From: Chaenocephalus aceratus
Taxonomy: Eukaryota; Chordata; Actinopteri; Perciformes; Channichthyidae
Direction: 5' to 3'
Assembly (NCBI GenBank): GCA_023974075.1
Contig: CM043787.1
Coordinates: 33,823,718-33,887,717, forward strand
Length of the DNA stretch: 64,000 nt
The notes under the pieces were generated by a model that saw only the letters and a list, made by a program, of their open reading frames with translations, had not been told where the DNA came from and did no database searches. Positions 1,798 to 4,800 of this stretch are shown here, in pieces. The translations under genes were made by a program, and so were the position numbers. Numbering within the stretch: the first letter of the stretch is position 1; each line of letters starts with the position of its first letter.

Positions 1798-1860
1798 CTT
1801 TAGCTTGGAATGAAACTCACGAGATTTCCTTCTGGCAAGAACCTGAATGTGACTAGACAC
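1798..1860 (-). CDS. tead1: tead1 alternative exon 3 (RRKS type, canonical TEAD1), TEA recognition helix
   Basis: A 63-bp, phase-0 exon with acceptor (ccttccccgcag|GTG, very strong pyrimidine tract) and donor (CTAAAG|gtatgc). It encodes [16 protein letters not shown] followed by HSKLK, which differs from human TEAD1 residues 90-110 only by Glu for Asp at 104. It carries Ser102 within the RRKS motif. It lies 90 bp downstream of its partner exon. The next exon of the gene is outside the window. Confidence 0.95.
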
Positions 1861-4800
1861 CTGCGGGGAAGGGGAGGGGAGGAAAACAAAGGAAGAGCCT
1901 GTAACCATGGCAATGAAAAGCCCCCTGCAACTGGGCAAAGCCAGACGTACCTTAATGGCAGCTTGGATTTCTCGAACTTTCTTTCTTGCTAAGACCTGTA
2001 TGTGACTAGACACCTCCATAAAAAAAGAGAGAAAACAAATAAAGAAAACAAGAAAAAAGTCGATTATACAGTTCTTTGTTTAAAATACACTTGAGGGAAA
2101 AAAGGTGAATAACAGAAGCATCTACAAACACACACCAAGCTAACAGCCAATAGAGCGTTATGCTGTGTGTTGTCGTCACTTAAGTGAGCTGATTAAGGAG
2201 GATGCAGGCCCCTTTAGCACACATTAAGAGCACACATTAAGAGCACCCAGATGTGATCTGCTGTGTGTTGAATGAGAAGTGGCTGGTCTAGTATTCTTAC
2301 GGGAGCGGGACGAGGCATTTCATCGGCCAAGTTCAGCCTCCAACGTTAAAACAGAGCAAAAATATTTAATATTCTCACATGAAACTCTGTTCATTCAGCA
2401 GTGCAAGTAGCAGTAAGAAAAAAAGACATGTCTGTTGATTGGCGTCTCCTCTGACACTATTCAGGAAAATCAAACCCAAGGTTATATTTCTAGCTTAGGC
2501 AAAGTGATTTAGCAATGGCTTTCTGTTCAGGTATATATTTATTCACTATCTACAACTTCCAGTTGACAGATAAGCTAGAGCTGAGTAAGTAAGTAAGGGA
2601 AGAGAATTTAGCAGCAAATATATATATATATTTTTTTTTTAAGCAAAGATATTCAGACAGTTTCTGGTTCTATAACTTCTCCAATGTAATACTTGTCTAT
2701 ATTGTGTGACTTGTGTGTAGAGGGAAGAGTCGCAGAGAGACAAACCACACTGTGTGTCAGACTGATCAATCCACACTCAGTGATCGAATGTCTCTGCAGA
2801 CACTGGCTTGTTTATCATTGTCTTTCAAGTCAGTGGTCATACGGAGGAGTTCCTGTGAGAAACGGGTTTATTGCCAGGTAGGTTCACACGTACGAGGAAT
2901 TTGGCTTGATGTCATGGTGCAATGCATACATCAAATATAAAGCAAAACATTTAAGTACACAGATAGCGAACTGTATTAAGAACACTGTAAAAAGAATATC
3001 AGAGATGCTTATTATCAGCTGATGTAAATACAAGAATAAACTGTTCTTGGATTTATTTTTAGTATTATATTTCCTATGAGATATAAGAGAAAGAAAGATA
3101 GCCCTGCATTCTATATTATACATTATCTTGATTTCTTACAGAAGAGACTTGAAAGAAACATGAAAACTTGAGTCAGAAATCTGCGCTAACCTCTGTGGTA
3201 AGAGTTGTTAGTCTGCGGTATGAACACAGTGTCCCAGCGAATGCTCTCTAGATCTGTTCATATTTCCCAGCTTATTAATACAGGCTTCTGCTCCGACCAA
3301 GTGCATAACCTCCTTGGTTTAGTCATGACGAGGAATACTTGCACTGTTAAGCTACTGAGATTTTTAAATGCCCTTGTATTTATTGTGCATAGCTGCTTCA
3401 GAATAGGACATGAAAGGCAGCTTTTAAAACGACTTCTGCAGTAATTTTACAATAAGTGACAGTTTTGAGAATGTCATAACCCAGGGACATCTGTTCATGC
3501 ACCAGAGCATTGACGGGGGACTTGTCAGCCTCAGAAGCCCTCTCGACAGCTGAGCATTGTGTTATTCTCTGTCTGGAAACAAAGGCAGCAGTCTGCGTGC
3601 ATTTAGATTTGACAGCTCTCTGACACTCATGCAACAGAGACGTCTCTCCCCTCGTCTTACCTGCTTCCGAGTCCTCGTCTTCCCGGTCCGAAGCTTGATG
3701 TATCTGGCTATCAGCTCATTTCGACCTGTGTAAATCAAAACATGAGAAATGTGGATTAATGCAAAAATATTTCACATTTAACATAATATTAAATATCAAG
3801 TGAGGAATGGACATGTTTTTTTACATTTAAAAGAAGAAAAACATCACGGCCATGAACATTTTTAGAATGCTCATACACATTTGAGTTTCAAATAAAGGAA
3901 AACATAAGCCATCAACAAACAAAAGATAGGAGAGCTTCTGTCAAAAACACCCTCTTCCCCGCTGCTGCTTTTTCTTGGTTGGTTTTCTGATTTCAACAGT
4001 TTTCCCGGCCTTACTGTGAAAACCAATTGTAAAATATTTTAAGATCCAGTAAAAGTGATTATAAGCAGCAGTTAAATAAACACAATGAGGTCATTTTACT
4101 CAAGACAATTCATAATTTAGAACCTTTGAACATAATTGGGATTTAAAATATCTTTAGTCACAATATCCATCACTTGTTCATTCACAATTTATGTAGGAAG
4201 TAATGATAGAATCATACAAATATGGACAGAGCAAATTATAAGGTTTATGTCCATATTTTAAAGTGCATTCAAATCAGAAGGTATGTGCATCTCCTCAACA
4301 AACCAGATCCTGTCAGAACACCATGTGACACTAGCATGAAAAAACCTTGCAGCAACCCAGCCTTTCAAATTAATCTAATTCAATCTCATTCTCTTCAAAG
4401 CACTACGCTTTGAAAGGAAACAGACCTAGCTGTTCATACTATTACAGAACATGATGGCAACTGAATATATTGGGTTTAAAACAGTGCAGCTCCGACTAAA
4501 TTATAATTAAAGCATAGCTTTGTAGAGATTTCCAATTAACAACGGCTCCAAACATTCTTCTGCCCTCAGCTCTGCTCTAATTGTTGTAGCAATGCACATG
4601 ACCCCTGCTTAGCCCTTTCATATGGTAATAACATGCCGCCAACCAAAACTATTACACAAATTATAGGTAAGGAGGCACTCTAATTGTGTGTCCAGCTGTA
4701 GCCAACCAATGCCATGGATGTGCTCTGCTCCTCTATGAAATGCAGAGAACCCTCAATACAATGACACATTTTTCTACATTCACATCATTATCAATTAAGG

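What the first reader, a model, noticed from the sequence alone, without database searches (positions are those of the whole stretch)
1798..2013. Tandem duplicated exon for the TEA-domain recognition helix of tead1
Two 63-bp phase-0 exons, 90 bp apart, both have good splice sites and encode 21-residue versions of residues 90-110. One is canonical TEAD1 (RRKS). The other is RKKV with REIQAAIK, a TEAD3-like form. They diverge in the C-terminal half of the DNA-contacting helix 3 and its basic NLS-like stretch, and the RKKV form replaces Ser102, a reported PKA site controlling DNA binding. Switching exons would make a factor with altered, kinase-insensitive DNA binding. The similarity of one copy to TEAD3 and of the other to TEAD1 hints that the duplication predates the vertebrate TEAD paralogues. 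I do not know whether this exon pair is already described.
Basis: partly seen in the sequence, partly recalled or inferred. Interest (0 to 1): 0.88.

Follow-up and report, generated by a model that had tools for sequence, protein, structure and literature searches.

The report
Ancient alternative exon pair in TEAD genes
A fish tead1 gene carries two side-by-side versions of the exon for the end of its DNA-binding domain; the same pair occurs in other TEAD genes and from lancelets to mammals, so this Hippo-pathway factor very probably has an ancient, little-studied splice choice.

Summary
Confirmed and extended. On the minus strand two 63-nt phase-0 exons (A 2013-1951, B 1860-1798) lie 90 nt apart with strong splice sites. 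Of 102 TEAD1-type A copies retrieved, 80 equal the window's A at 21/21 residues, among them mammals, birds, reptiles, frogs and a sawfish. Tandem A+B also occurs in TEAD3 of sharks and bony vertebrates, in lampreys and in amphioxus. This fish genome holds the pair in tead1 and two tead3-like genes; a second tead1-like and a tead4-like gene show only B. A groups with A and B with B across genes, so the duplication predates the TEAD1-TEAD3 split. A-only, B-only and A+B isoforms are all in public records; strict mutual exclusivity is unproven. The swap leaves the exon's first ten residues and the NLS charges unchanged and changes residues 100, 102 and 105-109. Ser102 is lost in A, but is probably not ancestral in B, so kinase insensitivity is unlikely to be the pair's original role. 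A human study reports regulated inclusion of sequence just upstream of TEAD1 exon 5. New member of a known kind.

The parts
1951..2013 (-). Exon A: 63 nt, phase 0, TEAD residues 90-110, [21 protein letters not shown] (TEAD3-like type)
   Evidence: 80 of 102 retrieved TEAD1-type A copies identical
1798..1860 (-). Exon B: 63 nt, phase 0, [21 protein letters not shown], the canonical TEAD1 type; the human exon 5/6 primer in PMC12422734 fits it with one mismatch by eye
1861..1950 (-). 90-nt A-B intron, open in frame; apart from the final AG every adenosine is at intron base 51 or nearer to the A donor
1898..1910 (-). CCATGGTTACAGG, branch-point-like element; its TTAC adenosine is intron base 49. 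Back-translation allows it in 11 of 11 other TEAD1 retained introns (10 species), across all three frames
3661..3725 (-). Upstream TEA exon (ends [21 protein letters not shown])
23845..24046 (-). First coding exon, from an AUU start in Kozak-like context to the donor (IDPSSW...GKMYG)
   Evidence: end 23845, start counted from it

Best explanation
Exons A and B are a tandem homologous exon pair of the TEAD gene family, formed before TEAD1 and TEAD3 split and probably before lancelets and vertebrates split. Each completes the TEA domain: both keep the first ten residues of the exon (start of helix 3) and the basic NLS pattern, while the end of helix 3 differs. A has a bulky hydrophobic residue at 102, a non-basic residue at 108 and Ile at 109; chordate B has Ser or Ala, Lys (Asn in one decaying copy) and Leu. 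The pre-mRNA is spliced to A or to B; in tead1, joining A to B is probably disfavoured because the possible branch points lie at most 51 nt from the A donor. The likely effect is not a new DNA motif but altered control of the same factor: loss of Ser102 where B has it, and a different helix-3 end beside the 4-residue microexon and linker. SHOWN: the pair, its conservation, A-with-A and B-with-B relationship across genes, A-only, B-only and A+B protein records. INFERRED: regulated use, the branch-point mechanism and the functional effect.
For: Both exons, splice sites and phase. 80 of 102 TEAD1-type A copies identical to the window's. Tandem A+B in TEAD1 of a sawfish (P0142), in lampreys (P0129, P0130, P0232), in TEAD3 of sharks, a chimaera and bony fish, and in amphioxus (P0228-P0230). 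In this genome A-A nucleotide identity between genes is 44-49 and B-B 41-53 of 63, against 39-43 for A-B within a gene (ranges overlap at the low end); an ML tree splits A from B in 91% of 200 bootstraps; separate duplication in tead1 and tead3 is rejected, AU p 0.018 on DNA and 0.010 on protein. A-only and B-only models in one species: Pseudoliparis swirei, Salmo trutta, Limanda limanda. A-only proteins from source 'lgn' (taken to be Logan) with longest contigs of 2537 and 1566 nt (P0034, P0039); tead1 here spans about 32 kb, so these are cDNA-like. Branch element with 46-49 bases before its adenosine (54 in Neoarius) in 11 of 11 TEAD1 retained introns, in three frames; under 50 bp is the steric criterion of PMC5740500 (passage). 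PMC12422734 reports regulated inclusion of sequence just upstream (~90 bases) of human TEAD1 exon 5 (passages).
Against: A+B isoforms are annotated in 161 of 264 retrieved proteins (lists cut at 120, one query was A+B), so exclusion is leaky or absent. Introns of 80-100 nt are common and well spliced in fish (recalled), so the steric argument may be weak. The only yUnAy consensus match in the 90-nt intron is TTCAT at base 37, not the conserved TTAC at base 49. In tead3 on C5 the intron is 145 nt with an adenosine at base 105, so the mechanism need not apply there. Most isoforms are computational models. No junction reads of this fish were available. A separate duplication in amphioxus is not rejected (AU 0.16).
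Confidence: 0.72

Rival explanations
1. A is a cassette exon added in front of B: inclusion gives an A+B protein in which A completes the TEA domain and B becomes a 21-residue basic helical insert before the linker.
For: A+B is annotated in TEAD1, TEAD3, lampreys and amphioxus. Frame is kept. A low-confidence AlphaFold model of P0003 keeps the three TEA helices and runs helix 3 through both copies, residues 87-132.
Against: A-only isoforms that skip B exist in fish, frog, salamander and mammals (25 of 264), two of them on short 'lgn' contigs. Donor to branch-point distance is at most 51 nt in tead1. The model has mean pLDDT 48.9.
Confidence: 0.3
2. Only a phospho-switch: A exists to remove the PKA site Ser102.
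For: Position 102 is Ser in B and Val in A. PKA and PKC phosphorylation is reported to inhibit TEAD DNA binding (PMC6628201 passages; the exact residue is recalled).
Against: B has Ala at 102 in amphioxus, one lamprey type, shark TEAD3 and the tead4-like gene, so the pair exists without the Ser; the other lamprey type (P0232) does have Ser. The recurring A/B differences also include 108 and 109.
Confidence: 0.12
3. A is a conserved but non-functional relic or splicing-noise exon.
For: No reads from this fish. The solved TEA chains match B-type sequences. The A acceptor has a weak GAG end. A was not detected in the second tead1-like or the tead4-like gene.
Against: Near-invariant peptide over jawed vertebrates; open frame and splice sites kept in three genes of this genome; A-only records in several classes.
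Confidence: 0.05
4. Assembly artefact or false local duplication.
For: Tandem copies can be duplicated wrongly in assemblies.
Against: The copies differ at 20 of 63 nt; A followed by B is found in 182 of 264 retrieved protein records (161 adjacent, 21 with a retained intron) and in two other genes here.
Confidence: 0.01

Closest known systems
Tandem duplicated exon substitution events (homologous mutually exclusive exons), e.g. the 236 human events of PMC9741552
   Same: Adjacent homologous exons of equal length and phase, ancient, present in fish and mammals
   Different: The term TEAD does not occur in the main text of PMC9741552, PMC5740500, PMC4465641 or PMC7954323 (term look-ups; supplements not open to me). 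Exclusivity is not shown here, and the pair is shared by paralogous genes.
E2A/TCF3 exons E12/E47 and FOXP1 exon 18/18b (both recalled)
   Same: A transcription factor whose DNA-binding domain is completed by one of two alternative homologous exons
   Different: There the swap alters dimer behaviour or base preference (recalled); here the exon's first ten residues are unchanged and the change lies at the end of helix 3.
TEAD1 exon 6 (12-nt microexon, RBFOX2-regulated)
   Same: Alternative splicing of the same gene, next exon downstream of B
   Different: A 4-residue insertion, not an exon swap (PMC10167241 and PMC12422734 passages). This fish has VTNM at L005:9587-9576.

Membership tests
Tandem homologous (mutually exclusive) exon pair | Two adjacent homologous exons of the same length and phase | tested here: met
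Tandem homologous (mutually exclusive) exon pair | Both exons have functional-looking splice sites | tested here: met
   (rough score, frequencies recalled)
Tandem homologous (mutually exclusive) exon pair | Each exon used alone in transcripts | tested here: met
   A-only 25 and B-only 55 of 264 retrieved proteins; records of other species, many of them computational models, not this fish
Tandem homologous (mutually exclusive) exon pair | Never both in one transcript | tested here: not met
   A+B in 161 and A+retained intron+B in 21 of 264 proteins, many of them computational models; so filed as a homologous pair, not as strictly exclusive
Tandem homologous (mutually exclusive) exon pair | A mechanism that forbids joining, such as donor to branch-point distance under 50 nt | tested here: inconclusive
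   Possible branch adenosines up to base 51 in tead1, up to base 105 in tead3 on C5; branch point not mapped
Tandem homologous (mutually exclusive) exon pair | Regulated, tissue-specific choice | not testable with these tools
   No RNA-seq. PMC12422734 reports a change just upstream (~90 bases) of human exon 5
TEAD1 gene | TEA domain, AUU start, TEAD1-like C-terminus | tested here: met
   that TEAD1 starts at AUU is recalled

The most novel reading that the evidence does not exclude
The TEA domain carried a splice choice between two helix-3 ends in the last common ancestor of chordates, over 500 million years ago (date recalled). The TEAD paralogues then divided it: TEAD4 and one fish tead1 fixed B, mammalian TEAD3 made A its default (default recalled), and TEAD1 kept both, with human TEAD1 still switching under signals. 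TEAD paralogue differences and TEAD1 isoform differences would then be in part one and the same ancient choice.
Probability: 0.5. Interest if true: 0.85.

Novelty: new member of a known kind. Interest (0 to 1): 0.68.

Why it matters
TEADs are the DNA-binding end of the Hippo pathway and drug targets. If A-form and B-form TEAD1 differ in regulation or partners, reporter lines, antibodies, structures and knock-ins built on the B form miss part of the biology, and the usual split between TEAD1 and TEAD3 may partly be a fixed splice choice. The pair also makes a clean test case: two proteins of one gene differing at seven residues.

Tried and rejected
Rejected: teleost-specific novelty; separate duplication in tead1 and tead3; altered NLS (against the A sequence); simple base-specificity switch (four of five matched PDB chains end at exon position 15-19; which residues read bases is recalled only). 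Searched for relics of A upstream of B in the second tead1-like gene (2786 nt) and the tead4-like gene (1093 nt): best BLOSUM scores 14 and 13, below the maxima of 20 mononucleotide shuffles, 26 and 30; best nucleotide identities 30 and 28 of 63 against shuffle maxima 29 and 32, so the first is one above its shuffles. Led nowhere: full-length AlphaFold models (mean pLDDT 48.9 and 52.3); the 50 Foldseek rows shown for the A-only model are TEAD chains of 194-222 residues, YAP-binding-domain size, and say nothing on the TEA domain; P0121 in viral and genome contigs, nothing confirmed; Rfam, 0 matches in the window; TEAD-DNA contact papers, none found in the listing.

Not reached: three papers are not held: 10.1016/s0167-4781(00)00261-x (Zuzarte 2000), PMC9410899 (Choi 2022), PMC108436 (PKA paper of 2000). 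PMC13241777 (2026; 8 hits for 'TEAD1 splic', 1 for 'TEAD1 exon') was seen in a search listing only because the 15 paper slots were used, so a description of A there cannot be excluded. Some TEAD1 splice events in print are numbered or described too loosely to place: 'SRSF1 promotes TEAD1 exon 5 inclusion' (PMC10167241 passage) and an EMT in-frame event in an 'internal repeat downstream of TEA domain' (PMC3158048 passage).

Full report
OBSERVATION. The window's minus strand carries a tead1 gene. Exon 2 (3725-3661) ends in ...RTRKQ; 1.6 kb on lie exon A (2013-1951) and, after a 90-nt intron, exon B (1860-1798). The exons share 43 of 63 nt; no third stretch of the window reaches 36. The first ten residues are the same in both; the seven amino-acid changes are at exon positions 11, 13 and 16-20, i.e. 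residues 100, 102 and 105-109. Downstream exons, to the one with the stop codon, were found just outside the window (L005), so the gene looks intact.

CONSERVATION. The protein database held vertebrate records. Three searches, each listing its best 120 of 3277, 2905 and 2929 hits, gave 264 different proteins. Sorted by residue patterns written from the earlier rows (the patterns themselves demand a non-basic residue at 108 for A and Lys for B), they are: A+B 161, B only 55, A only 25, A plus an in-frame retained intron plus B 21, neither 2 (P0121, P0123). These shares are biased: two queries carried A and one carried A+B. Of 102 TEAD1-type A copies, 80 equal the window's A at all 21 residues. 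The names among the records with A include mammals, birds, snakes, a lizard, frogs, salamanders, bichir, sturgeon, a sawfish and many teleosts. Many are computational models.

AGE. TEAD3 of sharks, a chimaera, gar, bowfin and teleosts has its own tandem A and B, and so, with 198-207 nt of open frame between, have mammalian TEAD3 records (lemur P0143, narwhal P0155). Lampreys have A+B (P0129, P0130, P0232); amphioxus has [21 protein letters not shown] followed by [21 protein letters not shown] (P0228-P0230). In the protein tree test one duplication before chordates is best, separate duplication in each gene is rejected (AU 0.010), and a separate duplication in amphioxus is not (AU 0.16) (21 sites, 19 rows, several identical). 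In one search, whose B equals that expected of TEAD4, none of the 120 rows is named TEF-3/TEAD4 or TEF-4/TEAD2; some rows have uninformative names. Two A+B rows bear such names (P0002 TEF-4, P0025 TEF-3) but have TEAD1-type B and following residues.

THE SAME GENOME. The genome search answered twice. The genome (1.06 Gb) shows five TEAD loci in the P0003 search (46 exon matches; counts are lower bounds): the window's tead1 on C3; a second tead1-like gene on C6 (7.07 Mb); tead3-like genes on C5 and C7; a tead4-like gene on C6 (33.6 Mb). A and B are both present in C3, C5 and C7; only B was found in the two C6 genes, without a convincing relic of A. Paralogue names are mine, by sequence. A-A identity across genes is 44-49 of 63 nt, B-B 41-53, A-B within a gene 39-43; A and B separate in 91% of 200 bootstraps, and separate origin in tead1 and tead3 is rejected (AU 0.018). 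The B copy on C7 is drifting (RKSLEIQSNLK).

SPLICING MECHANISM. In the 90-nt intron the adenosines, apart from the final AG, are bases 3, 19, 25, 37, 43, 49 and 51, so any branch point lies at most 51 nt from the A donor. The 13-mer CCATGGTTACAGG around base 49 can be encoded by 11 of 11 other TEAD1 retained introns (10 species) with 46-49 bases before its adenosine (54 in Neoarius), across all three frames, against 0-1 of 300 shuffles each. Conservation in different frames means that bases, not a peptide, are kept; I read it as a branch point. This is back-translation, not DNA, and the only yUnAy match in the window's intron is elsewhere, at base 37. Of 10 TEAD3 retained introns, 0 allow the 13-mer and 6 allow TGGTTAC, with a high background (28-85 of 300 shuffles) (one of the ten, P0165, is named INO80-like). 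The C5 gene has TGGTTAC in DNA at base 60; the C7 gene has none of five related words. PMC5740500 used under 50 bp as a sign of steric interference (passage). The A+B records show that any block leaks.

FUNCTION. Sd's bipartite [20 protein letters not shown] (PMC3121794 passages) keeps a basic residue at each basic position in A. Of five matched PDB chains, four match only to exon position 14-16 and end at 15-19, so residues 105-110 lie largely outside those constructs; that bases are read by Ser and Gln of VSSHIQ is recalled. A swaps Ser102 for Val; PMC6628201 says PKA and PKC phosphorylation inhibit TEAD by disrupting DNA binding (passages; Ser102 itself recalled). But B has Ala there in amphioxus, lamprey P0130, shark TEAD3 and the tead4-like gene, and Ser in lamprey P0232, so Ser102 is probably a later gain. 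Differences that recur from amphioxus to mammals are residues 102 (bulky hydrophobic in A, Ser/Ala in B), 108 (non-basic in A, Lys in B apart from C7) and 109 (Ile against Leu).

LITERATURE. Ten searches and term look-ups in 15 papers (two gave no passage) showed no description of exon A as such. [10 protein letters not shown] occurs in one held paper, PMC3121794. [quoted passage not shown] by eye its forward primer fits exon B with one mismatch, and its exon 6 is the 12-nt microexon. The wording allows two readings: a region ~90 bases away (exon A) or ~90 bases long (the intron between). I infer, but have not seen, that it is human exon A. PMC13241777 was seen in a listing only. The exon is thus in public annotation but, as far as I could search, uncharacterised.

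VERDICT. A real, ancient homologous exon pair, filed as a new member of a known kind. Strict mutual exclusivity, regulation and function remain to be shown.

Noticed in passing
P0121 (unnamed source, longest contig 76,920 b): A predicted 303-aa protein holds three tandem copies of a fused exon-2-plus-helix-3 unit; the first two end A-like (SFK, VIK), the third B-like (HLK). Organism unknown; possibly an independent amplification. Not found in viral or genome contigs.
   Followed up: partly
L008 (C7 tead3-like gene), exon B: VSSHLQVLAKRKSLEIQSNLK: Arg103 and Lys108 lost, so this B copy may be decaying while A is kept.
   Followed up: no
window 24046-24044, minus strand: tead1 appears to start at AUU in the context GCCACCATTG; between it and the stop before it in frame there is no ATG. 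AUU initiation of human TEAD1 is recalled.
   Followed up: no
L005:9587-9576 and 9513-9508: The 12-nt microexon (VTNM) lies outside the window with a TGCATG 62 nt downstream, an RBFOX-type site (recalled motif); in mammals this exon is RBFOX2-regulated.
   Followed up: no
window 3633 and 3501, minus strand: Two TGCATG motifs 27 and 159 nt after the end of exon 2, upstream of the A/B choice; 33 occur on this strand in 64 kb.
   Followed up: no
P0195 (Lampetra planeri record): A TEF-5-like 'lamprey' protein on a 34-kb contig has the commonest teleost TEAD3 A and B peptides exactly; likely contamination, not used as lamprey evidence.
   Followed up: no
window 21082-21474, minus strand: Open frame with a BED zinc finger (PF02892, E 3.1e-10), transposon-like, between tead1 exons 1 and 2.
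   Followed up: no
P0122 (Culex), P0123 (Paragonimus): Predicted proteins with the RNELIARYI unit twice, nearly identical; probably assembly or model artefacts.
   Followed up: no
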